In this document: positions 1-31,166 of the stretch, one piece after another
Numbering within the stretch: the first letter of the stretch is position 1
Layout of the letters: each line of letters begins with the position of its first letter
The notes under the pieces: model-generated
What the model saw: only the letters and a program-made list of their open reading frames with translations
Told to the model about the DNA's origin: nothing
Databases searched by the model: none
Position numbers and translations under genes: made by a program
Source: Fragilariopsis cylindrus CCMP1102
Lineage: Eukaryota; Bacillariophyta; Bacillariophyceae; Bacillariales; Bacillariaceae
Direction: 5' to 3'
Length of the DNA stretch: 34,942 nucleotides
NCBI GenBank assembly: GCA_900095095.1
Contig: FMBT01000115.1
Location: 1-34,942, forward strand

Positions 1-975
1 GGCTTTTTTTAATTCACCCTTACTCTCCAATTCTTCCTGAACACTACCATATGCTAAACTAAAGACTTGAAATCCACCTGAATCTGTTATGAATGGTCGA
101 TCTTTGCGATTGGTCCATTGATGGATACCACCAGCCTCGGCAATTATATCAGCTCCAGGATGTAACATTAAATGGTATGTATTTGAAAAGATCAATTGCT
201 GTCCAGCTTTATCAGCATCTCTAAAATCTACACCTTTTAAAGCAGCGTTGGTTGCAACGGCTACATACCCAGGAGTATCTATTATCCCGTGAGGTGTATG
301 GATCCGTCCGACTCGAGCTTGACTCTTACTAGATTCATGTATTAATTCAAAACGAAAAAAGTCACGGGGTTCGTATGCCCAGTCAGGAAAGTCATCTGGA
401 CCTAATAGTGGGTGTTCTTGTGATGATGATGTCGATGACGACGACATTGATGATAATATTGATGATGATGATGATTGTTTCTTATTGCCATCGTTAAAAG
501 TAGGATCCAGTTGTGTCTTTAAAGTCAAGAGCTCTTCAACGACCGGTGCTATTATTGTAGCCTTATCAGCCCCCTCCTCTTTCAAAGCACGGATTTTATC
601 ACCCGTTTCTTTAATTTTTGACTCCAAAACCTTCCTTTGTTCCTCTGAAAGTTCCGTTGCTGATGATCCTGTTGATGATGATGTTGATAATAATGATGAT
701 GATTGTTTTGATAATTTGTGATTGGTATTCCTTCTTAAAGTCTTCTGCGTGTTGCTTTTAGTCGTAATGAATTGAGCCAACCTCGTCGAATGATGATGAT
801 GACGATGATGACAATTTTGCTGTTGGATCTTCATTGGAAGTGAGAGGAAGGCATTTACAGCGCTCGTCCTACCTTTGGATTGATAACCATTCTTCCACAC
901 CAAAGACAACATAATCAGCACAACTACTACTTTCGCTTGTTGATTAAAAGATATGTAATATGGTAAGCACAACAT
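1..975 (-). CDS. tgt: tRNA-guanine (queuine) transglycosylase with WHEP-like N-terminal domain, partial
   Basis: This enzyme exchanges guanine 34 of GUN-anticodon tRNAs for queuine or a precursor. The catalytic domain begins near 400 and runs off the window at position 1. It contains the signature TDSGGFQVFSL (87-55), whose Asp is the conserved general base, and the ending VFSL is closer to bacterial Tgt than to animal QTRT1 as I remember them. The later nucleophile Asp and zinc site lie outside the window. From 642 to 490 an amphipathic segment with ALKEEGADK and VVEELLTLK matches a WHEP-TRS helix pair, normally found in aminoacyl-tRNA synthetases. The start at 975 is the first ATG after an in-frame stop. 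It gives a hydrophobic stretch (AKVVVVLIMLSLVW) followed by VNAFLS, resembling a diatom plastid presequence with Phe at the cleavage site. An ATG at 912 is the alternative. Ser/His-rich linkers separate the parts. Transglycosylase identity is secure; WHEP and plastid targeting are inferred. Confidence 0.9.
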   Translation of the reverse strand, partial: MLCLPYYISFNQQAKVVVVLIMLSLVWKNGYQSKGRTSAVNAFLSLPMKIQQQNCHHRHHHHSTRLAQFITTKSNTQKTLRRNTNHKLSKQSSSLLSTSSSTGSSATELSEEQRKVLESKIKETGDKIRALKEEGADKATIIAPVVEELLTLKTQLDPTFNDGNKKQSSSSSILSSMSSSSTSSSQEHPLLGPDDFPDWAYEPRDFFRFELIHESSKSQARVGRIHTPHGIIDTPGYVAVATNAALKGVDFRDADKAGQQLIFSNTYHLMLHPGADIIAEAGGIHQWTNRKDRPFITDSGGFQVFSLAYGSVQEELESKGELKKA

Positions 976-1460
976 CTGATCAAAAAGTACACTGTACTAG
1001 AACTCTTTTTTGATATTGCAACCAATTTTTATCTAATTTGATGACGAAGACTTCGAAAGTTTCATACCGTCTGTGAGTATTATTGTTGATGTTGATGTCA
1101 AGGGGATTAATAGAGATACGGTACTAGTAGTAATGAGATAATGCTGCAGCCCATCATTTTATCTTTTTTCATGATTGGTCCTCCATCGGCATGTTCAATG
1201 TGTGAGTGAGAGGCAGTCGAGTCGAGTGAGTCGATTGATTCAGTCATGTTTTTAATTTTATTGGAAATTTGAGGGATAGTCGTATTTTTTGTATTTTTAT
1301 ATCATTTTTTAGTAACGTTAGATCCAATGATCCAATCACAATACTCTGACTGCAACACTTTTGCTTTTTTGCTTTTGTTGTAACATCATCAACAGTCTTG
1401 AAATCACAAATACGAGGTATCACAAAGCAAATACATTTTGACATCAAAAAGCAAAAAAGG
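976..1460. other. Intergenic region between divergent tgt and FKBP genes
   Basis: These 485 bases separate two genes transcribed away from each other, so both promoters probably lie here. I see AT-rich sequence and a short GAGTGAG-type repeat near 1203-1232, but no RNA gene and no open frame that reads as a protein. Confidence 0.5.
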
Positions 1461-2754
1461 ATGAAAGTGATTCGATTGCATAGGCCCATGCTTAGTTTTT
1501 GGTCTTTATGGGTAATGACGAGTAGTAAATTGTTATTGGTAAGGGCATTGATAGTCTTTCGATCGTCGTCGTCGTTTCCGCCTTCAACAACAACGACGAC
1601 ATCAATAAGACGGTCCCATGATGTATCTACAAATACTAATAGTTGCTTATTCAATCAAAACAACGAAGATGATGGTGATTATGATACCAGCTTGTTTCCA
1701 CGAAGTAGTATGAACAGAAGGAAAATATTTACTATGTTGACAGGATACACATCTGCTCTAATTGTCACTGCTGCAAATACTAATCCTGCAAAAGCGATTG
1801 TCACCGACGAGACTGACAATTTCGCCGACAATTACTGGGATAGTAGTAGTAGTAGTAGTAGTAGTAGTAATAAGAGTAACAAAGATTCACCCATTTCTTT
1901 ACCATCACCGTCTGACGAAGTTGTGGTAACTGTAAAATCGAAAGATTTACAAACGAAAGGTGGCATTGGCTTAGAACTAGGAGAGATTGAGTTTCGAACT
2001 AATCGTAGAGTATTTGTAAAGAGTGTCAATGAAGGATCTGTTGCTGATCAATTGGGAATACAAAAAGATTGGGTAATCGTGTCAATTAATGGAGACACTG
2101 CTGAACGAACTAATGTTGAGGGTGTAGCTACAATGATTTATCGTGCATCTCATAAAGCATCGTCATCATCATCAGAGTCTGATGATGTAATTGTATTGCG
2201 ATTCAGAGATCCGGTGATTTTTCGTGACCAACTAAGAGACTTATCTTCTTCTTCTCCGGATTCTGTCGTTACAACACAAGTGGCTCCCGCGGGAGATACC
2301 ACACAACGTCAATTGGATGGATCAGTGAAACCTGGTAGAAATGTCACAGAACAAGACGATCAACGAATATCCGTCTCACAATTAATCCCCCCAAAGATGT
2401 GCAAACGTGGTTCGACGTTGGATGACCTAATGGAAATCAGTTACATTGGACGGGTCGTTGAAACAGGGAACATATTTGATGGATCTGCTATCATGGTCGA
2501 TGGTGAAGGTATACCTGGTAGAGGGAACGATGTATCATTTCTTTCGTTTTGGGGAAGCAACCTTTTGGTCAATTTCCACCCGGCTGGGATGTTGGCTTAA
2601 CCGGCATGTGTGTGGGAGAACGACGTAGGATACTTGTTCCACCAGTATTGGCATATGGTGAAAAAGGCCTACCTAGCGAGGAATTCCAAGCCAAGCTACC
2701 TTGCAATATGATGTGACTCTAGTGTCCTTAAACGGACTTGCTACGCCGCGATAG
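1461..2754 (+). pseudogene. Thylakoid-lumen PDZ-like/FKBP-type peptidyl-prolyl isomerase with two frameshifts
   Basis: FKBPs catalyse cis-trans isomerisation of prolyl bonds. The start is the first ATG, giving a hydrophobic leader. Residues 86-112 carry a twin arginine, a hydrophobic core and an AKA cleavage site (NRRKIF ... NPAKA), the classic Tat signal for the thylakoid lumen. A PDZ-like domain follows at about 1920-2215 (GGIGLELG, GSVADQLGI, VIVSINGD). The FKBP domain runs from about 2416. Its frame breaks near 2538-2541, where one extra T in the T run restores VSF into [14 protein letters not shown] and [13 protein letters not shown]. It breaks again near 2675-2679, where one added base restores [19 protein letters not shown] up to the stop at 2752-2754. 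Without correction translation stops at 2600, inside the isomerase fold. Both breaks look like single-base losses, so assembly error is as likely as a true pseudogene. The family call is firm. Confidence 0.8.
1839..1868 (+). repeat. (AGT)n trinucleotide repeat encoding poly-Ser
   Basis: About ten AGT codons in the linker between the lumen-targeting peptide and the PDZ-like domain of the FKBP gene. It is an in-frame microsatellite and probably length-variable. Confidence 0.85.
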
Positions 2755-3359
2755 TAATATTATTTTATATCATATATGTGTATATATTTCTTTCGTATTC
2801 AATCGGACACTCTCTGTCGGTTAAAATCAAAGCCTAGTATAGCTTTCGGGAGCCACATATGCACTAGTAGGTTCAACCAAGCTGGGTCTAGTAAACAGAA
2901 AATGTAGATTCAGTAATAGAGTCGTAATAGGATTCATCAATATAGGGTAGTGCATGTAATAATGGATAATGGTTATTGCTTATAAAAGTGAGCATCATCA
3001 GGGTCATGCAAAACTAGTCATAAGGGCAATTTAGTCCTAATCTATCTATGCCTCATTTATAAAAAAAATATTTGTAATTGGATGCATTTACGGTCCGATA
3101 AATTATTATTAATGTTTAAAAAAAAAAAAAAAAAATGTATACATAATAATCGCAAAGAAATACTTTAACTTATGTACTTCAAGTCAGGGTCATAAAATTT
3201 ATAACCCTGTTTCAAGCAAGATATGAAAATAAATGCGAAGAAATGCAAAAACATATCATCAAATTTCATACGAATAGAAGTACCAATACAATCATCGTAA
3301 CATAGAAAGTACAATCACAATTAGATCGTCTAGCACAACGCTAACGTCAAGTCTGAGCT
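2755..3359. other. Intergenic region with poly-A run
   Basis: AT-rich sequence between two same-strand genes. An uninterrupted A run lies at about 3119-3135. I see no RNA gene, mobile element or credible reading frame. The last 100 bases are presumably the promoter and leader of the ArfGAP-DENN gene. Confidence 0.5.
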
Positions 3360-6300
3360 ATGGCTCGAGTGAAAGGTGACGCGTCGAGGAGTGTCGACAC
3401 CGATCGACAACGGAAACTTCCAAAAAAAGAACAAAACGACGATGCTGGAACAAAATCAGGATCGAAATCAAATAGCAACACCAAGCAAGAACGAAACAAT
3501 ACCAAGATGCATGAAGATATCAGCAACACCAGTGATCGTTCTGTCGCTAAGATATTGACCTTGCTGCGATCTCAACCTTCTAATAGATCGTGTTGTGACT
3601 GTCGATGTGCTTTGATAGATCCATCAAATGTTTTTGTCTCAGTTTGTTGTCCCGAAAATTCGATTGGGAGAGGTATCTGCCAAAATAAGAGTCGAAAGAT
3701 AGATAATGAGGACGATACGATTGAAATTTCTCTACAAGATTTTCATTTAACGCACCGTGCTTTTGCACCCCCAAATAAAGTTGCTGTTGAAAAAAACGGC
3801 GACGATAATAGTAATAGTCAAAATCTATACAAGTATAAAGACGACCCAGCAATTTCAGCTAATGGACGCTTTGGTGGGCATGGCGTATTTATATGTTCGA
3901 GATGCGCTGACGCTCATCGGCAGCTTGGTTATACAATACAAGTGAAACGAGTCGTGGATTCCTCTCTTTGGACGATGGACGAAGTGCAATCCATTGCTGG
4001 GAATGAACAGTGTTGGAACATTTATGAAGGCTTCGTGCCAGATTCGTGGAAACAACGGAGACCGATATTTTCCAGTCCTATATCAACCCGTATCTTGTTT
4101 TGTCGTGCAAAATACGAGGCCTTAGCCTTTTCTCTGCCACAAGTTGGGCCGTTGGCAGAAATAAGCTGGCGAGTTGTCCTACGGAACCATCAAAAGAAGA
4201 ACAAAAATCTTCTCGGAAAACAGTCGTACAAAATATCTGCCAGTTTGAAAAATATCTATTCTCTTTCGATAATGGCCCAATCGAATGTGCCAAACAAAAA
4301 TACTGCAGAAGGAAAAGGGAAGAAATCTAGTCGCATACCCATCGACTTATCGATTATTTTTGTGTTATCTCATCATCGTCGCAACTTCTTCCAAGCAACC
4401 CTATCAGAAGCAAAAAACAAAAGACGGTCGATTATTCCAATTTAACTTCTCCAGAGGAACTGAAATTTTGGCCTCATGTTACTGACTGTTTTCCCCGAAA
4501 AAACACACACGGGGAAATGGGATATCAAGATCATATTTCCAGTTTTGTTATGCCCGATGGATGTCATCCAACGTTACAACCTAAACCACCATGCTTTTTT
4601 ACCTTTGTACTGACCATGCCGGACGGCTCATACTTGTACGGTGGATCTCTACAAATTTACGACGAACATGTCGACGCAGGAGAAATCAAGAGCAGTATGA
4701 GAGATTCGGGATACAAAAATGGATTTCCTAAGTTTCTTCAACAGAATGACATCAAAAATAATGATACATCTACTACAGACTCATCGGATGTGTTCTTCTT
4801 TCCCAAATGCTTAGTTATCTTGTCGCGTTATGCGTTCTTTGATATCTTTCGGAGCGTCCTTTTGGATATATACCAAATCTCGTTGATAGGCGCGCCTCTT
4901 CCCATCGAACGGTACATTGCCAATATTGTTTGTGAAATTCCACTGCCACCACAGGGTCAAGTTAAGGTTGAATTTGGATTCTCAAGTGACAAAAAGTTTC
5001 GGATTGAACGTCCGCCCATAAATGAATTGCCCATGGCCAACTTTTCCTACCGCCCATTATTTGCCTCGTTGAGTGTTAGCAATGTGATGGTAGTTCTGGG
5101 GTATCTATTGCAAGAATGCAAGGTAGTGATACTATCACAACATTACAGCATATTGACACCAGTAGCAGAAGCGCTTTTAAGTGCTATTTTTCCCTTTCGG
5201 TGGGCCGGTCTTTACCTTGTAAGTTTTCACATACTTCGTTTTATTTGCTTTCGGTTTTGAAGTCGTTTCTATACTCGTTGTGCATTAGTCGTTTTCCAGC
5301 CCGTACTTACTTACGAATTGTTTGCATTACCTTCATTATTGTTGGATATAGCCCGTGGCTCCTCTGAAAATGATAGAAATCTTGGATGCCCCAGTGCCGT
5401 ATCTCATAGGGTGAGTTAATTTTTGCATTTATTTTCCCTTTCCTTTTGGTTCCTTCTGGTCTTTCTTTCTAACGAATCGCGATTCTGTGATAGGCTGAAC
5501 ACGGAATACTTCAAGATGGTGGATGTTCGCCACAGACCACCAGATGCAATACTTGTAGATTTGGATCGAGATGTCATTTATATAGGAGATATTCCGCTTC
5601 CAGAAATTCCAGTACGTGACGCTCAAAAACTTAGTACGGCGTTAGAAGAAGCTGCTGGGTCAGTATATGTCGTTCCAAACAGTGGTATAAAAGGCTGTAT
5701 TATGGGCGGTTCGAAAGAATTAGTTTTAGTTCCTAACGAAGACCGTCCACGATACGCATATATGACAACTGCGACTGGCCTACCAGTAGAGATGCACTCT
5801 ATGGGTCGATCGGAAGTATTTTCAATAACTGATTTGGCTTATGGCAGATTTGATGACGAAACTGATAGAATCAACGGGTTTGGAAGTGTAGACGGTCAAT
5901 TTACTTCTACGGAAGAGACCGAAGTAACAAATGAAAAGAAAAAAGGGATCGCTTTTAACGCGAGTCCGATGAAAAGGCCTAGGTTTATGCGAAATAAAAA
6001 GGTCGATATCTTGTCCAATAATCACTTAGCAATGAGTCAAAGCCATCTTCTCGACATAATGGCTGAGCCAGAGGGATTTTCTGTAAGTAATATTCGGAAC
6101 ACATTCTTCGATTTACAGTTGCTACATTTGCAGAATATCAAGATTCCTTGTTATCGGGTTCGAAACGCGATTTGTTCGACAGGGAAAAATTCATTGATAA
6201 GGGTGGTTCTCAAGGGGGAGGATCCAAGTTATTTCTGGAGAATATATTGAATACACAGCTCTTCCAGCGTTTCCTAGAAGAACGAATAGAAAATCCTAAT

Positions 6301-8442
6301 TTACCAGAAATTCGCTTTTTCGACGAATCCATTGTTGCAAAAAGGAATCGATCAAAGAAGGCAATCGCGAACGGTGGAAAGAAGTCGACGCCATTTTTAA
6401 ACGACAAAACTACATGGAAGGTAACAAAACAATTCGCACCTCCTCCACCGAACAATTTTGGGCTACCTGACACAGAAGATTCTCGCGCTTATAGATACGG
6501 ATCATTTCCAGCATTGAATGCTGCGCTATTTGGTCGAATTCGCCCCCCTGTAACGTGGCCTCAGCACACTAATCTTGACTCGGTTCGATCGAAGTACACA
6601 AGATCTGACTCGGAAATGAAGAAAACTCAAAATCGTATCTTCAAAAAAGTTCTTGCAGCACCAAATGTAATAGCGGCAGCAGCAAAGCATACAGCCAGAA
6701 ACTTGGAGTCAACACTCTCTGCCCTATCTATTATTCCTATTGCGAAACCCCAAGATGTTGTTTCCAACAAGACTGAAGGAGGAGGAGGAGGACGAGAAGG
6801 AGAAGGAGAGGGAGAACTTCCCTCCCCTCAACGAAATGTCAGCACGCTTACAGCTGCAGATACAATTATGATGGATACTAGAAGAAAGCAGACTATCCTA
6901 TTGGATATAATAATACAAATACAAGCAATCTGCCGTGGCTTTTTAGCTCGGCTTCATTGCAACGCTATCAAAGGTGAAGTTCTAAATACCAAAGAGAAGC
7001 AGGTGCAGCATGAGTTGGAATCAGCGAAAGCGAAACGCAAAAATAGACGCACCAAAGAGAAGCAGGTGCAGCATGAGTTGGAATCAGCGAAAGCGAAACG
7101 CAAAAATAAACGCCTTTGTAAAGCTGCAATAGGGATACAAAGTTTTGTTCGCATGTATAATGCCCAGAAATTGGCCAACCAACTCCAAAAAAGACGCCTT
7201 TGTAAAGCTGCTGCAATAGTAATACAAAGTTTTGTTCGCATGTATACTGCCCAGAAATTGGCCGACAAACTGCTTAAAGCAATTGTCGAAATTCAAAAAA
7301 GCCAACGAGCCTCAGTTGCTCAAAAGAAATGGAGAATAATGAAGCATAGTGCCATTGTGATTGCAAAGAACATAAGGGCTCGACGGGCTCAAATCATTTT
7401 TCATGAGTTGAAACGAATCGTTACAAGTATCCAGGCTAGAGTGAGAGGAATGCAGATTCGGGTTGGAATTAAAGATTTTGTGGAGAAGAAAATTTTGTTA
7501 TATAATAGCCAAATATTTTTGCTGTGGAAACATTTACACGTTTCTCTTACTTTCAGAACCAAGCTATGGCCTGATATTTCGGGGAGTCATAGCTTTATAT
7601 GTCTTCGTCTAGCAGAATCAGAACTAATACGACTATGGGAAATTGCTGATTTCCCTGATCGATTAACGGATGCCAAAGGCGCAGACGAAATAACACGGCT
7701 TGGTGATGTTTTTGGCATCGGTAACGAAGTCTATTGCAGAAGCATAAAATGCATAGATTGGATTAATAATTGTGGATCAGCGTTGACTGAATATTCTACT
7801 ATCGAAAACGCTTTTCGAATAGAGGAAGCGGAACGTCTACAGATATATGAAAGGTTGAGCTCCAGTGTCAGTGTATCCAAGAAGGGTGTACCCGAGAAGG
7901 ATATCTTAACGATGTATCATAATTTTGATATTCTTCAGTCGACCCCGATGAAAAAAGTTTCCCTCTCCAAACGAATCTGGACGAATCTTGATGAGTCCGA
8001 CCGCTCGGCATCTTCTATGATTTATCTTTTCCCGGAATTAAACAATTCACTTGGTATTAGCTTTCAAAAGCCTTCTTCCAAGGGCCAACGTCGATTTCCG
8101 AAGACTCGCAAACCGCCACTTCCTTCAATAGACCATGTACTCTGGGACCGCGCTTCAATAGAAGGCAACACAAAGAGACACGTTCAAGAAGTTGCCATGA
8201 TCTTCATTACAAGAGTCCCCTCACTAACGATTAAACTGGATTCCATCTGTCAGAGAAGATCAAATTCAAGATATATTTCATTCCTGGAAGCTGCAAGGAA
8301 AGTGTACGGCTTCCAAAACCTTGAACAAGCCCAATGTTCTATCATTATGCAATATCTCAACAAAAGCTGTTCTGCAAAACTGAATCCAAAAAAGGAGAAC
8401 GAGAACCAACGTATTATCTTATGTGAAGAGAAAAAGTGTTAG
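3360..8442 (+). CDS. ArfGAP-DENN-IQ multidomain protein
   Basis: ArfGAP domains switch off Arf GTPases, DENN domains are Rab exchange factors, and IQ motifs bind calmodulin. The ArfGAP zinc finger has C78/C81 (NRSCCDC) and C179/C182 (VFICSRC), the arginine finger in HRQLG and an ending RAKYEALAF. The DENN module follows: uDENN from RLIDYF (about 4343), cDENN through APVPYLIG and ILVDLDRD (about 5040-5620), dDENN with FDREKFI and TQLFQRFLEER (about 6190-6290). Six IQ motifs lie at about 6905-7470, then about 320 residues I do not recognise. Introns are 5219-5351, 5411-5493 and about 6083-6133. One base must be added at 4338-4340 (CCC run) and one at the 6082/6083 donor to keep frame. Between the stop at 4328-4330 and the ATG at 4517 the uDENN start has no initiator of its own, which argues for one fused gene. 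A weak intron ending at 4330 is the alternative link. Confidence 0.82.
6988..7113 (+). repeat. Tandem 63-bp direct repeat in the IQ region
   Basis: Two adjacent 63-base copies (6988-7050 and 7051-7113) are identical except for one base near the end (AGACGC versus AAACGC). Each encodes 21 residues beginning TKEKQVQHELESAKAKRK, a charged helical segment that lengthens the lever between the first and second IQ motifs. The near identity indicates recent duplication. Confidence 0.95.
7114..7281 (+). repeat. Duplicated IQ-motif unit (about 84 bp, two copies)
   Basis: 7114-7197 and 7198-7281 are similar in-frame units, each opening CTTTGTAAAGCTGC and encoding IQSFVRMY followed by AQKLA. Each is one complete IQ motif. 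Differences are few, apart from a one-codon indel and a more divergent 3' end, so this calmodulin-binding segment expanded recently. Confidence 0.9.
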
Positions 8443-12480: not shown

Positions 12481-15400
12481 CTAGTCACGCGAGGACTCAC
12501 GTCTTCGAAAAAGTCTTCTTAAAACTCCTGATCGTCTTTCAACCGACTGCCGTGGAGAGGAATTCTGATTTTGTCCTTGCCGTTCATTATCGATATCGTT
12601 GCTATTACCCAGTGATTGATTTGTTTGCGTTTGCGAGTTGTTCGATCCGGTGTTGTTGCCGTCGTCGTTTTCAGTCTCTTGATTCCCTGTTGCTGTTGTC
12701 TGAGAGATTCTCTGAACAAGTGACCCGTTCGGATCAATAGGCCTCGGATTCTCTGAATAAAGCTCAGAAAAGAGATCAGCATTATCTTCGTCGTCCATGG
12801 GATCGGTATCGGTGGACAATAGGGAGTTGCCGAATAGAGCCCCTCCCCTACCTAGCCGTGTCATGCTCCTGTTAGAGGAGGACAAGTTTCTTGCGCCCCC
12901 AAGGATTGCTGTCGGCGATCTGCCACCACTGCCTATAGTAGCAATGCCCATACCGCCTGGAGATGCCCCCGGGGCTGTTACAATAGCGTGAATATGAATG
13001 TCAATGCCAGTATCGCCTGATCCGCCATTAGATCCTCTTGATAAGAGTCTTGCCAGTCCTGTACTGCTACCAGAACCATTTTCGTCATCCGCTGTGCCGC
13101 TTCCAAGACTGGCTGCTGCCAAATATGTTCCAAGTAGATTTGCAACGTCGTCGTGAGAAGTTCGACTCCTAGGTCCTTGTCTAACCTCACCTCGTGATGT
13201 ATTGACTACACCACTCGCAAAATCTACATGATCAGGATCGATCGTGGCTGTGAGCGTTTCAGGTCGTGTTGAAGCACTCTCCTGGTTTCCATTATGACGC
13301 CGTCGTTCACGAGACCATAACGAAAGTAGGCCTCCAAGTGGAGCCAAGGACGCCTCCAATTCTGGAGGATTTATACGTTCTGAACTGTTCGAAGCGGACT
13401 GGTCAGATGAAGTGTTAATCTCTTCTGGAAGCGATGCAGCTAATGAGGCAACATGTGAGGCGCTAGTAGTTAAAATTCGGCCAAGACGATCAAAAACTGT
13501 CGCAAGGTTTCGCAACTCTCTTTGACTATACATTGTTCTCGGATCGCGACCAGAAACTCGTTCTGAAATTGCATCTTCGTCATCGTAGTATATATTTTCT
13601 TGTTCGTCCTCTTCTTCAGGATCTTCTATATTGCATCGTACTGCACTACTATATGTACGATCATCATCATTATCATCATCATCGGATTTATCAGATTTAG
13701 TTGAATTCTCACCATCGTTTACACCCTCCTGCGCCATCCATGGTAAGTCTTTCTTGGCTCTTCCACACGTATCGTTAGTTTGTCTTTGTCTACTCAAGGG
13801 ACACAAGTCTCCAGTTCATCTTCGTCACTTTCTGACTATTGTTATCGCCGTGTTCCCGATGAACTAACTCTCCGAGCAAGTCGCTGACCTGGGCAAGGGC
13901 AACATTCAACTCGGGTAAAAGAGCAAGCCGATCTTCTTCTTCACCACCGTCTCGAATATTAGTTCTAGGTGCTTCAGTAAATACAGACTGCGGTGTTGGT
14001 GATGCTATAGATGACATATTGGGGTGACGAGTTCTCGTACGAAACGGTCGAATCCGTTCACTGTCGCTTCTCAGAAATTCGTCCCATCTTTCGGGCCATC
14101 CGTTGTAATGAATGAGAAGTAACTTCACACCATTATTATTAGATCGGGGCCGGAATGATGACTGGAATGATGGTGATGATTCGTCACCACGACCAGCATT
14201 ACTGCTACCTGAGAGCAATTCTTGTGGATCACCAGGTTCGCATTCTTCCAAAAAAAGTCTTCGTCGTCCCTCAAGGTCGGTAGAACTGATTACTGGATCA
14301 TTGTCTACATTTGATACTCGTCGCGCTCGTCGTCGTTGTCTATCTCTACGATACAAGGGTGATCCAATCGATGCAGCAGCAGTAGCTGTAGCAGACGTTG
14401 TTGTTGGTTGATTACGTAAAACTGCGTCGTCTAAAATATCCTGAGGATCTAGTACGTCAACGACGGTGGCCTCCAACCACTGGTTTACAGTGTCTCTAGC
14501 ATCTATCCATTGTCCTCGAAAAAATTCACGATTAGCTTCAAATGGATGATGAGATCTGATTCCTCCTTCACCTGCATGTACGTTCTGTTGTGAATTCATT
14601 ATTGTATGCAATGTCATAAGACCTTGTCGTACAGGTTCCATACTTCCTGGATCTGGAACTTCCAAGTCCTCAGCTACTAATCGGTAGGGCAATCGACGAT
14701 TATGACGATGCGAAAAAAGACCACTACTACCACTCGTGCTTGTGCTCGCTCGAGATGATCTCCACGGAGAGACAGTAGGTGCTGCTGCTGCTGCTGTTGG
14801 TGTTGTTGATCGATCAATAGTATTATTCGTATTAATACCGCTGTCTAGACTACCCAAGCCTAACAATGCCGCTAATAGAGCACCACCACTTCCGCTACTA
14901 TGCGATCCTCCTTCATTATCCGTAGTAGAACTATTATTTCCTACGCCAGCGGAACTAAAGTTAGCAGTTGTATTACTCGAATCTGAAAGAGATAATCCCG
15001 ACGTGTTAGCGTTGTCCTGTTCATCAGCAACATCAATCTCTGCAGTCTCCGTCTCTCGTCGTTTCTTAACGAGATGAATTGTCTGTCCATCACAAAGGCC
15101 TACGATGTCCTTAATTTTGTATTCATTTTCACAACAAACTATAGTCTTTTTTGAATCATCATTATTGTTTTGGTTGTTGTTGTTGTTGTTAGCATTGATG
15201 GGACTACTACTTTGAGAAACATCACTCTTCCCAATCAATCGACCGCGATAGATTAGTCGTTGTTGAGAGCCTTTTACACCAGTAACACCTTCAATTTCTT
15301 TATGCAGAGAGTCCATTCCGTCTTCTGGAGAGACCAATACATTGAATGATCGTGGTCCACCAACGACAGCGATTTGTTTACCGTTTACCTTTTCATCGTC

Positions 15401-15520
15401 ATCCACGCTAAGGCGAAAATCGTCGTCAAAACCACCGCCGACGGCCTTGACAAATAAACACCAGGGACTTATGGCCTGATCTTCTTCATTTTGTTTGGAT
15501 GTTGTTGCGGAAGGCGTCAT
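12481..15520 (-). CDS. Ubiquitin-like/Tudor-knot protein, BAG6/Scythe-like
   Basis: The N-terminal ubiquitin-like fold spans roughly residues 58-152 (FNVLVSPEDGMDSLHKEI, QQRLIYRGRLIGK, DGQTIHLVKKRR) and is interrupted by an Asn-rich loop. Near 14120-14050 a Tudor-knot/chromo-barrel-like segment follows (HYNGWPERWDEF, SERIRPF), preceded by DTVNQWLEATVVDV, the usual first strands of such a barrel. The C-terminal half contains RELRNLATVFDRLGRIL with HVASLAASL and IDIHIHAIVTAPG, reminiscent of BAG6-type proteins, and ends in an Arg-rich tail. The frame must change near 13790-13804. The likeliest cause is a 52-nt intron, 13804-13753, with CTAAC as a possible branch point; a one-base indel is the alternative. 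BAG6 acts as a chaperone holdase in protein quality control, but that role here is only inferred. Confidence 0.75.
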
Positions 15521-16773: not shown

Positions 16774-18798
16774 TCAATAATGGCAATGCAGTCTTTTTCG
16801 GACAAATTTTTGAACATTATCAATCGAATCGTCCAAATTGTACATGTCAGTTCCATCCTTTATGGGTACAATGAATAAAGCAAACACCGCAGTAAACTAC
16901 GATGTAGAAATAATTTGCAGTACATGCATCGTAAAACATACGGATAGAGGAATAGAAAAAAAGAAGGACTGTGATGAGAACAAGCGACTGCGGAAACGAC
17001 CAATTGTACTATTTTTTATAAAACTTTTTTTGTGCGTACTTACTCCTTGATGTAAAGCTCGACCCGTTTGAAAGACATTATTATTACCAGCTAATGCAAT
17101 GGGACCAAATTCACCATTCGCGTAAAATCCTAAACAAGGAACATTCGGAAATTTATTAGCAAAACGCTTTGCATCTGACATTTCTTCTGATATAAAATCA
17201 GGATTATTATCTGGTCCACGTCCACAACATGTATACATTAATGCACCTAATATTTGTTCATTTTTTGTTTGGTCCTTAAGTTTGGACATTGTTCTATCCA
17301 TATCTTCCATACATGATTTGCCATTCAATGTAAAGAAATCAATTTCTGCACCCAGTAATGATTCACTTTCATAGTCTGAACCATCTGTTGGTACAATGAA
17401 TGCATCTATGGATAATGATGTTGATACGTCAATTGCATTAGATAATTCGAATCCATCCATTCCATTATCTCGTTTTAAACCAATAAATTCAAAATTGAGG
17501 AGATCTGTATCATCTAATGATGATGATGACGATGATGATTCGAATAATTCAGATGATAACAATTCAATTGGAGTATAAATTTTATTGGTTTGGATATCTT
17601 TAATTTTTCGTATAAAATGAATCGGTGGTTGTTCATGTGAACCAAATACGAAATCATCATCACCTGGTTTCAGTAAGGATACATCTGTAACAATTAAGTT
17701 TGTTGAGTTTGCGTTGTTGTTTAGTACACTATGTACACCTCTTGATACGACACTCTTCACTGGTACATTCCCACCTAAGAAAACTCCAAATGCACCAGAT
17801 CTATTGATTTGTACCATCGTACTATCATTATTATCGTCTTCTTTTATTTTCTTTAGGGCATTAAATACGTATTCGACAAGATCAGACTTTCCTGGAAATT
17901 GTCTTGTATATGCAAACTCCGTTGTACTTCCTGGTATTGCGCAAGTATTTTTTAATATGTACCGTAAATGACTGATAGTCATATTATTCAATTCATTTTT
18001 TGTATATATTGAGTTTGATACGTATCCCTCTTTACAGACACCACCAACTATCACAGCATTCGGTCCGATAATTTTTTGCATCCGTTTTGTTATCATATCG
18101 GATGATTCAACACTATCCCCAACAACATACAATATCATTGCCTTCCAAAAGAATGGTTCGCTATTTTTGTTGTGATAACACAATCGTTGCTCTAAAAATT
18201 CTAAATCCTGTATATCAGGATGATGTCCATTAATGTTACAATTAATAACAAATGGTAATATTTTTGCATTAGGAAAATTCATTGCCATCAGTGATGCTGT
18301 ACTTGTATGTTCAATGATTGGCGGTCTTGGACTTTTTGAGGTTGAGCTAGCATTTGAGGTTGAGCTTGGTTGATTCACTTGAATATATTCATGAGCAACA
18401 GCACCAAGACTTATTGTATATTTCGATGGGAATGTTCTTTCAAAACCAACAGACGTTGGGCGCGTTGTCGCTGCTGTGGATGAAAATGTTAAGACTAAAT
18501 TCGGTCTAGTTTGAAGTTTATTCTTGCAATCTTTTATCATACATTTTTCTATTTCAAATTTACATGCTGCGTTTGCGTTTGCGTTTGCGTTTGCTATTGT
18601 TGATGATGCTACTATCGATTCAATGGCTGATGTTGTTACTAATTCTGGTCCTTTTATTTCATCACGGTATTTATGAACAAGATAATAATATCGTTGTGAA
18701 GTATTTGCTAATTGACCACTATCGACAACATTAAGGTATTGTATAATCCTTAGTGTAAGATCTGATGATAGATCATCAAATAACGACTCCTCAAACAT
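16774..18798 (-). CDS. FBXO22: F-box/FIST domain protein, FBXO22-like
   Basis: FBXO22-type proteins are SCF ubiquitin-ligase substrate receptors that join an F-box to FIST domains. Residues 1-50 form an F-box-like helix set (FDDLSSDLTLRIIQYL, then NTSQRYYYLV). The middle has a FIST_N-like stretch (VVGDSVESSDMITKRM, VIVGGVCKEGYVS). The end is FIST_C-like (ALMYTCCGRG, FPNVPCLGFYANGEFGPIAL). Exon 1 is 18798-17044, the 147-nt intron is 17043-16897 (GTAAGT...CGTAG) and exon 2 is 16896-16774. Exon 2 supplies FTAVFALFIVPIKDG, the hydrophobic strand expected after LHQG, and the stop. Total length is about 625 residues. Reading through the intron would give a tail with no family likeness. A repeated TTTGCG run encodes NANANANA near residue 75. 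The domain order supports the call; orthology to FBXO22 is inferred. Confidence 0.82.
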
Positions 18799-20848: not shown

Positions 20849-23095
20849 TCAACCACCAAAGGATAGTCTCGGAGGAGGAGCACGAGAAAGTTTCAATTCA
20901 GCCTTTTTCTTCAAACGCAATTCAAACATAACCTTCGAGATAAGAAGAAGGTCGGACAAACCCTGACTTTCTGGATCGTGCATATTATTAATATGTACTC
21001 GTCGACGTCGTTTGACAGGCCTTTGATTATCCCCTTCGGCATCAACGACAACGTCGTCATAGATAATTTTCATTTCACGAAAATTCCGAAATTTGGTAGC
21101 ACATGTAATACATTTTTCTACCAGCTTAAGAAAAAACTCTCGACGATGACCGTCATTGTTCGACCTATGTCCTCCTTTTTCGTACCGCTCTGAATCCCAT
21201 GGACTATACAATATAGGTAGAGCAACGCGGAGCCAATCACGTAGGGCCAAGTGCGGTTCAATGGACGTGTTGTGTAAGGTATTATAATCCATTTGGGCAA
21301 CACGAAATCGTAACTCCATTGGCAAACGTGCAATATCAGCTGCTTCTCCAGATAATGGAGCACCATTTTCTTCTTCAGAATCTTTTTCACTAATCATGCT
21401 TGATTCTGCCTCAGCAAATATGAAAGATTCCAATAAATCCTGTTCGTCTAACAAATCCCATGTCGGCACAGACGAGTTCTCCAATAGTCTAGAATCACTT
21501 CGTATCTTAGATGTCCTTTTTTTCGAATCGTTGTTTTCAAATGCTTCAGTTAATTGCTCCCAATCGATAGGTGGTATTGACAAATCCCGACGACCCTCCA
21601 TTGTGTCATTACTAGTATCTGTTAGAAAGGCTTCCAAGCATTCTTTTATCAAATCATAATCTGGTATGTCATTAAATCCAAGACCTTTTAAATGCTCAAA
21701 GGCCTTTGTCAATAGACCAACCTTGTGTTCGTCTCCGGATAAGGCCATAGGTTTTGGTAGGGACGGATCATCTTCGTCGTTGACGATAACATCTTGACCG
21801 TCGTGTTTCGGTGGATCGACCTTACCCTTACGTTTCTTGAACAGCGCCACGTGATACTCGTCTCCCATAAGTAAACGTCGTGTATTGATTAATATTTCAC
21901 CATCGGCTTGCGCCTCTAAGCCATGGATCCGTTCCTTGAGGGTTTTACATGCATCCCGATCTCGATTGGCCGCATGGCTCATCCACGGCAGTCCTCCTGA
22001 GGCTAGATCACAAAAGACATACAATAAAGACCAAATATCATCTCGAGGACAATAATCATTCAGCTGATGAACTCGGACACTTGCGTACATAGAGGTACCA
22101 CGGAAATCGGCCTTTTCTCGTTCTTTTCGGTAGCAAGATCCCGCTGAACCAGGAGATTGGCCTATCCAATTCAAACCACCCCAAGTTAGTGTCGAATTTG
22201 CCAAATTTGAATCTGATGGTACTACAATCGATTTAGACAGACCGAAGTCGACCATGCAAAACAAATTATTGCTCCCTCGTTTAACAACATTGCTCGGCTT
22301 GACATCTCGGTGAACGATTCCGACATAATGCATTTTTCTTAAGAGGGGTAGCATAACGTTAGCAGTTAGATATACGGCATCATTGATTGCGATCCGACGT
22401 CGGGCGCGGGCAGGAGTACTTGTTGTTGTAGAGCCGTTATTGGTATTATTGGTAGTACTACTGATACTATTCGGAGCAACTCTTTCGTCGTTGTTGTCTC
22501 TCTGCGAAGAGAATTGCGGTGGTTGTGGTTGCTGCTGTCTTTGTTGCTGTTGAACTTTCGGTTGTTGTCGAGTCGCCCAGTCTCTAATGACGTGCATATC
22601 TTGTCCTGTCAAATACTCCATAACAATAGCCGAAGTAACGGTGTTGTTATTTTTATCCCTATCTTTACTTACATAATGTCCCATATATGAGGGTACTGTA
22701 TGAGAAGGTAATACGTCGTCTAGGAAATGCAAAATTGATGCTTCTCCCCCCAAAACACCTGAATTTTTGAAATCACCAATCTCCACCTTGGCAGCTGCTA
22801 GTCGATGAGTTTTTGGTTTATTCTTTCCGTTATTACTAGTACTATCAATTTGTGTGTGATGATAACGCATGTTTATGCACTTGTGAATACTACAAAAGGT
22901 TCCTTTTCCTAACCGCCCTATGCTAAAATAGGGACCGAGGGTGGATCCAACTGCCGGGAAGTTGCCGGTTGTACGTGCAGATATCGGAGCACCATAATTG
23001 ACATTATCACGTCCACGACCGCTGGCTGTTCCTGCAGGCACCGCCGTTGCAGCAGGTGCCGTTATAGCACGCATACTTGAAGCCGCATCGTCCAT
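20849..23095 (-). CDS. Serine/threonine protein kinase, CK1/TTBK-like
   Basis: An intronless frame of 748 residues with all kinase signatures: glycine loop GRLGKGTFCSI, ATP-binding Lys in AAAKVE, catalytic loop HRDVKPSN and DFG (VDFGLSKS). In place of the usual APE region it reads RGTSMYASVRVH, followed by CPRDDIWSLLYVFCDLASG. That RGT-YASV-H and DDxWSLxY pattern is typical of the CK1 superfamily, especially tau-tubulin kinases. A Gln/Ser/Asn-rich insert of about 80 residues sits between the hinge strand (IVMEYLTGQDM) and the helix before the catalytic loop. The C-terminal 250 residues are not recognised and end PPRLSFGG. It lies downstream of, and on the same strand as, the PP2C-cNBD gene but is separated by 1.15 kb, so it is an independent gene. 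Substrates are unknown. Confidence 0.88.
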   Translation of the reverse strand: MDDAASSMRAITAPAATAVPAGTASGRGRDNVNYGAPISARTTGNFPAVGSTLGPYFSIGRLGKGTFCSIHKCINMRYHHTQIDSTSNNGKNKPKTHRLAAAKVEIGDFKNSGVLGGEASILHFLDDVLPSHTVPSYMGHYVSKDRDKNNNTVTSAIVMEYLTGQDMHVIRDWATRQQPKVQQQQRQQQPQPPQFSSQRDNNDERVAPNSISSTTNNTNNGSTTTSTPARARRRIAINDAVYLTANVMLPLLRKMHYVGIVHRDVKPSNVVKRGSNNLFCMVDFGLSKSIVVPSDSNLANSTLTWGGLNWIGQSPGSAGSCYRKEREKADFRGTSMYASVRVHQLNDYCPRDDIWSLLYVFCDLASGGLPWMSHAANRDRDACKTLKERIHGLEAQADGEILINTRRLLMGDEYHVALFKKRKGKVDPPKHDGQDVIVNDEDDPSLPKPMALSGDEHKVGLLTKAFEHLKGLGFNDIPDYDLIKECLEAFLTDTSNDTMEGRRDLSIPPIDWEQLTEAFENNDSKKRTSKIRSDSRLLENSSVPTWDLLDEQDLLESFIFAEAESSMISEKDSEEENGAPLSGEAADIARLPMELRFRVAQMDYNTLHNTSIEPHLALRDWLRVALPILYSPWDSERYEKGGHRSNNDGHRREFFLKLVEKCITCATKFRNFREMKIIYDDVVVDAEGDNQRPVKRRRRVHINNMHDPESQGLSDLLLISKVMFELRLKKKAELKLSRAPPPRLSFGG

Positions 23096-24245
23096 CGTTT
23101 CTCTCGATCACTTGTTCTTCCTGTGCTCTACTCTGATTGTTAAGATTGAGTACTAGTACAAAGCATCATTCTGGGGTTCTTTCAACTTTCAACAAACGTA
23201 ACCACAGATTTTTATAATAATTCAACATACTTGAAATACACGAATACACCGTAGTTAAATAAATGTTGAAATTGTCGTCAATCTACCGGTACTTGCAGTA
23301 CTGTAGTTTGAAAAACTACAGTACATACCTTTCTTACAACGTATACATAGGAAGAAGGTTATTTCTAAAACTTTATGATATATTTTATATAGATAGTATC
23401 AATATGAATGTTCATTGACCCCTCCACACTATGACCAAGAATTCACCCTTGATTGCATTGAAAGATCATATTCCCTAAAAACAGGCAATATGTATCACAG
23501 AATTGAATTTAAGTTCTAAACTATCAAATTTGTAAGTGGATCAGAAGTTAAGTGATTGAAAACACAGGGCTTATAATATTATTCAAGAGATCACATAGGG
23601 TCTTGAGCCGGAGAGATATGTATACGTCACTTTGTTAATGGCTCTGGTGGTTTAGAATTGTCAAGCTCTATGCCGTCATACATATTGCATATATCATTTG
23701 TTCTGGGAATACCATTACACACACATCACAGCCAGCGTAGATTGATGATGAACAAAAATGCATTCAAGTCCATTATTAGTATATCTACCTTTTTATGCAA
23801 GAGATATACATAGCTGAGCTTGGAGTGGCGGCAATATTTTTCTTATCCTCTCTTGTAAAGCACTCATACAGGCATGATCAAGTGTCTTACTAATCTAATA
23901 AATCATGAAGATTTGATGGATGCCACTCTACTGATATAAAATGCTAATATGTCTACTGTAGATACCTACCATATCACTAGCACGAATAAAAGTATAAATA
24001 GTGTATGAAGGAGTAATTAGTAGCTACTACCGTAGGGCGCATTAAAATGCTCGGTTTAAGACTACTTCAAGTATTAAGATAGTTATTCCAACACAGTAAA
24101 AGAGAATTGTTCGCAGTTGTCCTGCTAAATTCTTTTTCTTGAATGCCACTACCCTAGCGACAGATATTTTTTCTAACCACACCACTCACACATAAACACA
24201 TACGATTGATGTGACACAAATCCTGTTCGGACACATTGAATATTC
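23096..24245. other. Intergenic region with a perfect hairpin
   Basis: 1.15 kb of AT-rich sequence between the PP2C-cNBD stop and the kinase start. Apart from the hairpin at 23298-23324 I see no gene. In particular, no kinase-domain exon continues the PP2C-cNBD gene here. Confidence 0.55.
23298..23324. repeat. Perfect 12-bp inverted repeat with 3-nt loop
   Basis: GTACTGTAGTTT, loop GAA, then AAACTACAGTAC. It lies about 200 bases upstream of the kinase start and could be a cruciform, a dimeric regulator site or part of a transcript hairpin. Confidence 0.8.
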
Positions 24246-28682: not shown

Positions 28683-31166
28683 ATGTCATCTACAATTTTA
28701 TACAAATTTCGAGCGTCTACGACGTTCGAGGCTTTACCTCTTCCCGGCTCTGCCGCTAGACTTTTTGATGTCAAAAAGGCTATCGTCAAGGCTAACAAGC
28801 TTGATACTGGAAGTATGGAATTCGATCTCGCTGTTCGTAATGCTGATACCAATGAGGAATATGCCGACGAAAGTATGCTATTACCACGTGGGACCAGAAT
28901 TATCGTTCAACGTCTTCCTGCAGGTCGGGGACAGGGTTTTCTTGCTCGTATGCAACGCAACGAACATGGAGGCGGCGGTGCAGGTAATAATAGCTTTCAG
29001 CAACAGCAACAGCAGCACCCTAGTGGGTATTATACGATCGACAGCCGAGCAAGAGAAAACGAAGAAGAAGAGTTCGTGGAGACGGATACTGCCGAAAGCA
29101 ACGACGATAAGGAGTTAGCTGCTCTTCAAGCGGTTACCTCTATTCAAGCTGATGGACCTACCATGGCTGGTGGACGATCCATGATGGGAGGTGGAGGTCA
29201 CCGAGGGGGGCGTGGCGGACCACAGCAACCTGCAGGGATGGGAGCTCCACCGAGTGGATCGAAACCGAATTACCATCAAAAATCTAATAACACCCATCAA
29301 CGACCGAATGCAGATCCGGAATTACGTGATCAGGAGAAAAAACTCATGCCCAAGAAACGTGCCACTGGTATTCCTCGAACTTTTTTGAATCTTTCAGCTC
29401 CACCCAAAACGGATGGTACCAAGGAGGGGGAAGAAGGTGACCAGACTCCGCTTTTGCAGCCAAACAAACAGGGATTTAAAGAGTTGGTTAGTCGTGGAGG
29501 AGGTCAGAGCGCAAATACAGCAGGCACACGAAGAGATTTGGACTATGTCTTGAAGCTCACTTCAACAACTGTGCCGGAGCATCTTCAATGCGCTATCTGT
29601 GAGAATGTTGTTAAGAGTGCTCTGTTATTGCCGTGGGATACAGAAGGCAGAACTGTGTGTGAAACTTGCATTCGGGATGCCTTAACTCAGAATGGGTTTC
29701 GTTGTCCTTTGACGGGCATGGATGGTGTTAGTCCTGACGATCTAATTCCTAATGTTGGTTTGCGTAAGGCTGCCGAATTGTTTATTAAGGGAGTAATGGA
29801 GCAGGTAGATGAGATTGAAAAGCAACAAGTTGAGGAGTCGGTCAATACGACAGAGAATCAGTCAAGCGAGAAAAACATTCTGGATGGTGAAGGCGTAGAG
29901 AAAGGAGTCATTGTTTCTAAAAGAATGTCTTTTTCTAATTCCAAAAAGTTGGATGGTGATCCTTTTGGCGGCGGTGTTGATGATTTTGGTGGGGATGTTT
30001 TTGCTGTTGAAGCGAAAAATCAGACAGCCAAGGAGCCAGAAGAATTGACGGACAAGAAAGAAGACGAGAATCTTGATACATCTACAACTACAGAAGTAGC
30101 AGTAAAAACAGATAGCAATTCAGAATCTAATACAGTTGTTGAAAGTACAGAAGAAACTAAATCTAATGAATCTAAAGATATTGATACTACTGCTGAAAGT
30201 GATAAATCCTCCTCTTTAACTAATATTCAATCATCTACTAATGAGGCTAATAGCAATAATAAGCAAAATGATAAAACAAACGAACTTTCGATTTCCGCGG
30301 AATCTTCAAATTTGAAGAGTAAGAATGAGCAGTCTTTTAAAACATCTACAAATGAAAGTAAGGCACAGAAATCACAGCCCACACCAACACCGCCATCTTC
30401 TCATATGCGCTTTCACAGAAGACGCGGTCCACCGGCAGGTTATGCTATGGGTCCTGCGGGCGCAAGAGCAACGAGCGCAAGAGTAAATAACCAGTCAGAT
30501 AATAATAACAATAACAATAACAACAACAACAACAACAACAATAATAATAATAATAATAACAATAACCAACATGGAAACAACGGAGGACAAAACTACCCTG
30601 ACCAAATGAACAATAATAACCACGAAAATGGATTTTCGAGAGGTGGTGGAAGAGGTCGAGGTGGACGGTTTCCCGCACGTGGTGGTGGTGGAGGTGGCAG
30701 ACATAATGGCAACTTTAATCAGAGAGATGATCGTAACGGTGGCGGAGATTCGTACGGGAGAGGAGATCGTGGCGGACGAGGGCGTGGCGGTGGACGCGGA
30801 CGTGGTAGAGGCAGATTTGATGGAGACCAGCAGCAGCAGCAGGATCACCGATTAATGGACGAAGACAACAATCGTGGTATGAAAAGAAATAGGGATGACC
30901 ATAGACACCCTCAACAAGATTCGGATGATTTTCGCGGCCATGAAGGTGGAGGAGGAGGAAGAGGAAGAGGAGGACCTTATGGTGGCAGAGGCGGGTATGA
31001 TGATAGAGGGGGAGGAAGGGGACCTTATGGTGGCAGAGGCGATGACAGAGGTGGTGGTTATGAAGGTAGAGGCGGAGGAAGAGGTCGTGGTGGTGGTGGT
31101 GGTGGCGGACGGAACTTTCGTGGAGGTCGAGGTGGAGGTCGTGGCTATGGTCGTGGTCGATACTAA
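28683..31166 (+). CDS. RBBP6: RBBP6/Mpe1-like DWNN-RING protein with RGG tail
   Basis: RBBP6/Mpe1 is a subunit of the pre-mRNA cleavage and polyadenylation machinery with a ubiquitin-like DWNN domain. Residues 1-80 are the DWNN fold (ILYKFRASTTFEALPLPG, FDVKKAIVKANKL, LLPRGTRIIVQRLP). The family motif TGIPRTFLNL occurs near residue 225. A RING/U-box follows at about 29574-29780: LQCAICENVVKSALLLPW, VCETCIRDAL, GFRCPLTG. The CCHC zinc knuckle that normally lies between DWNN and TGIP is absent; that stretch is Gly/Gln-rich. After an acidic Ser/Thr region and a poly-Asn tract comes a long RGG/RGRGG tail, a typical RNA-binding and arginine-methylation substrate region. One exon, 827 residues. The start is the only ATG placing DWNN at the extreme N terminus, as the family requires. 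Confidence 0.9.
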   Translation: MSSTILYKFRASTTFEALPLPGSAARLFDVKKAIVKANKLDTGSMEFDLAVRNADTNEEYADESMLLPRGTRIIVQRLPAGRGQGFLARMQRNEHGGGGAGNNSFQQQQQQHPSGYYTIDSRARENEEEEFVETDTAESNDDKELAALQAVTSIQADGPTMAGGRSMMGGGGHRGGRGGPQQPAGMGAPPSGSKPNYHQKSNNTHQRPNADPELRDQEKKLMPKKRATGIPRTFLNLSAPPKTDGTKEGEEGDQTPLLQPNKQGFKELVSRGGGQSANTAGTRRDLDYVLKLTSTTVPEHLQCAICENVVKSALLLPWDTEGRTVCETCIRDALTQNGFRCPLTGMDGVSPDDLIPNVGLRKAAELFIKGVMEQVDEIEKQQVEESVNTTENQSSEKNILDGEGVEKGVIVSKRMSFSNSKKLDGDPFGGGVDDFGGDVFAVEAKNQTAKEPEELTDKKEDENLDTSTTTEVAVKTDSNSESNTVVESTEETKSNESKDIDTTAESDKSSSLTNIQSSTNEANSNNKQNDKTNELSISAESSNLKSKNEQSFKTSTNESKAQKSQPTPTPPSSHMRFHRRRGPPAGYAMGPAGARATSARVNNQSDNNNNNNNNNNNNNNNNNNNNNNQHGNNGGQNYPDQMNNNNHENGFSRGGGRGRGGRFPARGGGGGGRHNGNFNQRDDRNGGGDSYGRGDRGGRGRGGGRGRGRGRFDGDQQQQQDHRLMDEDNNRGMKRNRDDHRHPQQDSDDFRGHEGGGGGRGRGGPYGGRGGYDDRGGGRGPYGGRGDDRGGGYEGRGGGRGRGGGGGGGRNFRGGRGGGRGYGRGRY
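30496..30567 (+). repeat. (AAY)n repeat encoding poly-Asn
   Basis: An uninterrupted run of AAT/AAC codons inside the RBBP6-like gene, just before the RGG tail. Mixed codons suggest selection on the residue rather than simple slippage alone. Confidence 0.9.

What the first reader, a model, noticed from the sequence alone, without database searches (positions are those of the whole stretch)
3360..8442. ArfGAP, DENN and IQ motifs in one polypeptide
The sequence shows an ArfGAP zinc finger with arginine finger, a three-part DENN module and six IQ motifs in one gene. ArfGAPs inactivate Arf, DENN domains activate Rabs and IQ motifs bind calmodulin, so the chain could couple an Arf-to-Rab handover to calcium. 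I know of no described protein with this order. The uDENN start has no ATG of its own after the stop at 4328-4330, which argues against two separate genes.
Basis: partly seen in the sequence, partly recalled or inferred. Interest (0 to 1): 0.82.

Follow-up and report, generated by a model that had tools for sequence, protein, structure and literature searches.

The report
Conserved ArfGAP-DENN-IQ fusion protein
One diatom gene joins a switch-off module for Arf proteins to a likely switch-on module for Rab proteins and to calmodulin-binding motifs, and the same chain occurs in diatoms, brown algae and water moulds, so it may physically link two steps of membrane traffic.

Summary
Window 3360-8442 is one three-exon gene for a 1622-residue protein: ArfGAP, uDENN, DENN, dDENN, an IQ array and a DUF3490-like segment. 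The frame break between ArfGAP and DENN is neither intron nor gene boundary: a near-identical second contig reads ArfGAP, uDENN and most of DENN in one open frame. The contigs differ mainly by indels, so the window's breaks look like assembly errors. ArfGAP and DENN share a chain in 159 of 236 proteins examined, from oomycetes, brown algae, Tribonema, Nannochloropsis and diatoms; three are transcript-derived. None of eight named hits outside stramenopiles has ArfGAP; most hits are unnamed. The catalytic arginine is present here (R187) but in only 75 of 155 proteins, while the zinc cysteines hardly vary; a tree needs at least 12 changes. So the conserved feature is probably Arf recognition tied to a DENN module; the arginine is kept in this lineage and in the oomycete rows seen, and often lost elsewhere. 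GAP activity, Rab exchange and calmodulin binding are untested. None of the papers listed by my searches describes the architecture.

The parts
3360..5218 (+). exon 1 (620 codons in the intact contig copy): ArfGAP, uDENN, most of DENN
   Evidence: open in L009 3560-5419; the window copy is one base shorter
3567..4145 (+). ArfGAP domain including its insert (residues about 70-262)
3591..3602 (+). first zinc pair C78-x2-C81
   Evidence: sequence; cysteines in 147 of the 148 proteins that have a letter there
3648..3869 (+). insert between the two zinc pairs, with a shared H..FAPP stretch in diatom relatives
   Evidence: alignment; pLDDT under 50 at residues 85-157 of the P0004 model
3894..3920 (+). 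second zinc pair C179-x2-C182, H186 and putative arginine finger R187 (codon 3918-3920)
   Evidence: aligned to the HR of SMAP1 and SMAP1L in solved structures
4341..4342 (+). place of one missing base relative to contig C69; causes the apparent break between ArfGAP and DENN
4472..4654 (+). uDENN (residues 372-432); the longin part begins earlier, with RLIDYF at about 4343
   Evidence: Pfam; alignment
4799..5569 (+). DENN core (residues 481-665), interrupted by the two introns
   Evidence: Pfam E 9.4e-49 on the spliced protein against 1e-32 on exon 1 alone
5219..5351 (+). intron 1, GT-AG, 133 bases
   Evidence: inferred from frame and DENN profile continuity
5352..5410 (+). exon 2
5411..5493 (+). 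intron 2, GT-AG, 83 bases
   Evidence: inferred
5494..8442 (+). exon 3: end of DENN, dDENN, IQ array, C-terminal segment, stop
   Evidence: open in L009 5695-8644
6103..6104 (+). place of a second missing base relative to contig C69
6175..6327 (+). dDENN (residues 868-918)
   Evidence: Pfam E 4.3e-10, 1.7e-10 on window DNA
6895..7473 (+). IQ array: motifs at residues 1116, 1188, 1217, 1240, 1286 and a degenerate one at 1263
   Evidence: Pfam IQ; motif scan; coordinates
7471..7668 (+). C-terminal segment that aligns with the DUF3490 match of relatives (QIFLLWKHLHVSLTFRTKLW)
   Evidence: motif comparison; PF11995 in 21 of 33 selected relatives; not called by Pfam in the window protein itself

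Best explanation
A single-chain traffic regulator, old in stramenopiles. The N-terminal ArfGAP domain recognises an Arf-GTP on a membrane and, in this species, probably stimulates its hydrolysis with R187. The DENN module that follows probably loads a Rab on the same membrane, so that Arf is switched off where Rab is switched on. The IQ array probably binds calmodulin or a related light chain and tunes or places the protein. Shown here: one gene, the domains, their order, their conservation and the predicted folds. Inferred: GAP activity, Rab exchange, calmodulin binding and the coupling between them.
Against: The arginine finger is kept in only 75 of 155 proteins and changes at least 12 times on the tree, so GAP catalysis cannot be the shared need. 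A clade of ten unnamed DENN-only proteins lies among the diatom-type fusion rows, so the ArfGAP part may be dispensable. Three named oomycete hits lack the domain (P0056, P0209, P0211). In 25 of 86 long fusion proteins the IQ count is not clearly above shuffles. Fold and motif matches show no activity. IQ motifs often bind calmodulin without calcium (recalled).
Confidence: 0.5

Rival explanations
1. The ArfGAP domain is an Arf reader, not an off-switch: it binds Arf-GTP to recruit or activate the DENN exchange module, much as Arl8b is linked to DENND6A. Catalysis is incidental where the arginine remains.
For: The finger residue ranks 51 of 112 columns in conservation while Asn, Lys-Tyr and Phe columns are invariant among 147 proteins; R to K is the commonest change, 42 of 155; 12 or more changes. 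Arl8b-DENND6A link: PMC10830484, title and start of abstract seen in a search listing.
Against: All 31 named oomycete rows with the domain and the window's nearest five rows keep R. All 8 other ArfGAP loci fetched from this genome keep HR, but these are the 8 best-scoring of 29 matches and include near-copies, so the control leans towards canonical members.
Confidence: 0.3
2. The DENN module is not a Rab exchange factor but a GAP or a Rab-recruited scaffold, as in Avl9 or C9orf72-SMCR8, so the chain would hold two ways of acting on Arf.
For: DENN proteins Avl9 and C9orf72-SMCR8 act as Arf GAPs (PMC12803157 and PMC8213707, passages read).
Confidence: 0.1
3. Two neighbouring genes, an ArfGAP gene and a DENN gene.
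For: In the window itself the ArfGAP frame stops at 4445 and the DENN frame has a stop at 4328-4330.
Against: The second contig is open through the site; close relatives read through the same stretch; transcript-derived single chains exist.
Confidence: 0.02

Closest known systems
SMAP1/SMAP2-type ArfGAP domain
   Different: 97 residues between the zinc pairs here; joined to DENN and IQ parts; arginine often lost in relatives
DENND1A/DENND1B Rab35 exchange domains
   Different: ArfGAP in front and IQ array behind; 21-23% identity over the aligned part; Rab partner unknown
Avl9 and C9orf72-SMCR8 (DENN proteins with Arf GAP activity)
   Same: a protein or complex with a DENN fold that acts on Arf (PMC12803157, PMC8213707, passages read)
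   Different: the Avl9 passages say that Avl9 lacks the canonical ArfGAP domain, and the C9orf72 passages count its complex as a different fold; here an ArfGAP domain is fused on
Automatically named stramenopile proteins: UDENN domain-containing, Arf-GAP domain-containing, putative Arf GTPase activating protein (Plasmopara), Rab guanyl-nucleotide exchange factor (Fragilaria)
   Same: same architecture, related over the whole ArfGAP-DENN part
   Different: named after single domains; I found no study of them

Membership tests
ArfGAP domain proteins | C-x2-C ... C-x2-C zinc finger in the ArfGAP fold | tested here: met
ArfGAP domain proteins | arginine finger after the second zinc pair | tested here: met
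   R187 in this protein; 75 of 155 aligned proteins have it
ArfGAP domain proteins | stimulates GTP hydrolysis by Arf | not testable with these tools
   needs an enzyme assay
DENN proteins | uDENN, DENN and dDENN in that order | tested here: met
DENN proteins | Rab exchange activity | not testable with these tools
   needs an assay
IQ-motif calmodulin-binding proteins | repeated IQxxxR motifs | tested here: met
   five clear motifs and one degenerate; Pfam IQ
IQ-motif calmodulin-binding proteins | binds calmodulin | not testable with these tools
   needs a binding assay
named ArfGAP subfamilies with PH, ANK or SH3 parts (ACAP, ASAP, AGAP, ARAP, ADAP, GIT; domain make-up recalled) | accompanying PH, ankyrin or SH3 domains | tested here: not met
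   in the full protein only DENN, dDENN, IQ, ArfGap and uDENN pass their cut-offs; the one other family listed up to E 1 is a sub-threshold PIWI-related match
Avl9-type DENN Arf GAPs | catalytic arginine in the longin loop | not tested
   position known from PMC12803157 passages only

The most novel reading that the evidence does not exclude
Stramenopiles possess an ancient single-chain Arf-off/Rab-on converter under calmodulin control. In it an ArfGAP domain has repeatedly turned, in nature, into a non-catalytic Arf sensor for a Rab exchange factor while keeping its zinc fold.
Probability: 0.35. Interest if true: 0.8.

Novelty: new variant of a known kind. Interest (0 to 1): 0.62.

Why it matters
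Arf and Rab switches act in sequence on membranes, and how one hands over to the other is an open question; the precedents read here use DENN proteins with unexpected Arf GAP activity. An ArfGAP domain fused to a DENN module, found from oomycetes to diatoms, suggests that the two steps belong together and gives one protein on which the coupling can be measured. The natural R, K, Q and E finger variants are a ready-made series for testing whether an ArfGAP domain can serve as a pure Arf sensor.

Tried and rejected
Intron between ArfGAP and DENN: 33 donor-acceptor pairs would join the frames; none is needed once the second contig is seen. Two genes: rejected. Window breaks as a true null allele: not excluded, but 39 gap openings against 15 mismatches in the aligned 34.9 kb point to assembly errors; I cannot check reads. 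Paper searches: ten, seen as listings, several of them capped (for example 10 of 1,751 papers and 10 of 742); none of the listed papers concerns this fusion. The library lacks most subscription journals; an Arf GAP evolution paper that I recall was only sought through its title words in other papers. The ARF5-DENND1 link (recalled) was searched; only one indirect paper came up, so it is not used. PMC4232254 was looked up for the effect of an R50K change and does not contain the term, so that the K variant is inactive is recalled, not shown. Regex reading of the finger mis-registered at least P0061; the profile alignment replaces it. That profile was built from 33 of the same proteins, chosen because they have the domain. 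Control for finger loss: only the 8 best of 29 ArfGap matches of this genome were fetched, with near-copies among them. The tree uses DENN columns and 119 of 148 eligible fusion rows after thinning; its outgroup has very long branches and the root is uncertain. A relation to SMCR8 or folliculin beyond the common fold was not pursued.

Full report
Observation. The window's own DNA encodes an ArfGAP domain (E 4.3e-10), uDENN (4e-9), DENN (1.7e-33), dDENN (1.7e-10) and IQ motifs (8e-11) on the plus strand between 3360 and 8442. In the window the ArfGAP frame and the DENN frame differ: the first is open to 4445, the second from 4331.

One gene. The assembly (68 Mb, 818 contigs) holds a second copy on contig C69, noticed because its ArfGap and DENN matches lie in a single 634-residue open frame. 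C69 matches the window in two stretches, 99.4% identical over 1-3076 and 99.8% over 3159-34942. Between 3300 and 8600 it differs by two substitutions and two extra bases, at window 4341/4342 and 6103/6104. In C69 exon 1 reads ArfGAP, uDENN and most of DENN without a break, and exon 3 is open to the stop. With two GT-AG introns the C69 copy gives 1622 residues and one complete DENN domain, E 9.4e-49 against 1e-32 for exon 1 alone. Over the aligned window the two contigs show 15 mismatches but 39 gap openings, a pattern of consensus errors rather than of divergence; I cannot exclude a real frameshift allele without reads.

Relatives. A search with residues 60-930 gave 59 proteins, two profile searches, of which 120 were listed each time. 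Of the 235 proteins listed plus this one, 159 carry an ArfGAP domain by a profile made here, all with DENN. By name they include diatoms (Pseudo-nitzschia multiseries by its Psemu1 label, Nitzschia, Cylindrotheca, Thalassionema, Ditylum, Chaetoceros, Epithemia, Seminavis, Fragilaria, Mayamaea), brown algae (Ectocarpus), Tribonema, Nannochloropsis, and oomycetes (Saprolegnia, Achlya, Thraustotheca, Aphanomyces, Pythium, Phytophthora, Plasmopara, Lagenidium) (lineages of five of these names looked up). P0011 and P0033 bear MMETSP transcriptome identifiers and P0060 a transcript name, so single transcripts carry the fusion. Among the 77 proteins without ArfGAP many start inside DENN or later and may be fragments. 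They also include three named oomycete proteins (P0056, P0209, P0211) and the diatom Entomoneis P0095, whose sequence starts just before the longin part. Ten unnamed DENN-only proteins (P0139, P0191-P0194, P0196-P0198, P0200, P0204) form a supported clade among the diatom-type fusion rows, which suggests loss of the ArfGAP part, or a missed first exon.

The finger. In 155 proteins with the second zinc pair aligned, both cysteines are present in 155 and the histidine in 154, but the finger arginine in 75; K 42, Q 9, E 7, N 6 and others make up the rest. It ranks 51 of 112 columns in conservation among 147 proteins chosen for having four cysteines, where N70, K106, Y107 and F112 do not vary (profile column numbers). 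On a tree of DENN columns with 119 fusion rows the state changes 21 times by parsimony and at least 12 times by starred branches. All 31 named oomycete rows with the domain have R, several of them from one genus; of 12 named diatom rows listed 6 have R; of the named Ectocarpus, Tribonema and Nannochloropsis rows 2 of 4 have R. The window protein and its nearest five rows have R. All 8 other ArfGAP loci fetched from this genome have HR, but they are the 8 best of 29 matches and partly near-copies, so this control is biased. The plain reading is that the ancestor had the arginine and that it was lost many times while the fold was kept; regains are not excluded, and another residue could stand in for it. 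That a K at this place abolishes GAP activity is recalled.

Zinc-finger insert. Compact rows, among them the oomycetes and Ectocarpus, have 17-20 residues between the inner cysteines of the two pairs; insert-type rows, among them all named diatoms that the scan could measure, have 50 to 284, with a shared H..FAPP stretch in most of the diatom rows shown. Its role is unknown.

C-terminal part. Five IQ motifs plus a degenerate one. Pfam IQ matches 23 of 33 selected relatives, and 21 of 33 match DUF3490 (best 3.9e-16), which I recall from plant NACK-type kinesin tails; the window protein has the corresponding stretch but does not reach Pfam.

Mechanism. I commit to an Arf-coupled Rab exchange factor: ArfGAP engages Arf-GTP, DENN loads Rab, IQ motifs tune. 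Shown: gene, order, conservation, folds. Inferred: all activities. The main rival is that Arf engagement, not hydrolysis, is the shared function. Related precedents are Avl9, a DENN protein that is an Arf GAP recruited by Rab8 (PMC12803157, passages), C9orf72-SMCR8 (PMC8213707, passages) and Arl8b-DENND6A (PMC10830484, title and abstract start in a listing). In the survey of DENN proteins (PMC3521125) the terms Arf GAP, stramenopile and calmodulin do not occur in the main text, and ArfGAP was counted 0 times.

Novelty. Known modules, an architecture that I did not find described in the papers listed, present over a large clade: a new variant of a known kind. Public databases already hold the sequences under single-domain names.

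Noticed in passing
window 7471-7668; relatives P0153, P0049, P0060: A segment after the IQ array matches DUF3490 in 21 of 33 selected relatives, a domain I recall from plant NACK-type kinesin tails; a possible further shared module.
   Followed up: partly
window 1-34942 against G000 C69:189269-224147: The window contig is a near copy of part of C69 with 39 gap openings and 15 mismatches; indels cluster at 23400-23480. Other genes in the window may carry false frameshifts.
   Followed up: partly
window 1464-2600: A PDZ-containing reading frame upstream ends at 2600 in the window; contig C69 differs by single-base indels near there, so the end may be false.
   Followed up: no
window 6988-7113: A near-perfect tandem duplication of 63 bases (98.4%) between the first and second IQ motif, repeating TKEKQVQHELESAKAKRKN.
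   Followed up: no
P0139, P0191-P0194, P0196-P0198, P0200, P0204: A clade of ten unnamed DENN proteins without ArfGAP among the diatom-type fusion rows; a likely duplicate that lost the ArfGAP part, unless a first exon was missed.
   Followed up: partly
P0063 and P0188: Two Ectocarpus fusion proteins, one with HR and one with HE at the finger; P0188 groups away from the HR brown-alga-like row P0049 in the tree. Possibly two paralogues.
   Followed up: no
window 13793-15520 (-), 16900-18798 (-), 20852-23095 (-), 28683-31163 (+): Neighbouring reading frames with ubiquitin-like, FIST_C, protein kinase and DWNN (plus a sub-threshold RING) matches.
   Followed up: no
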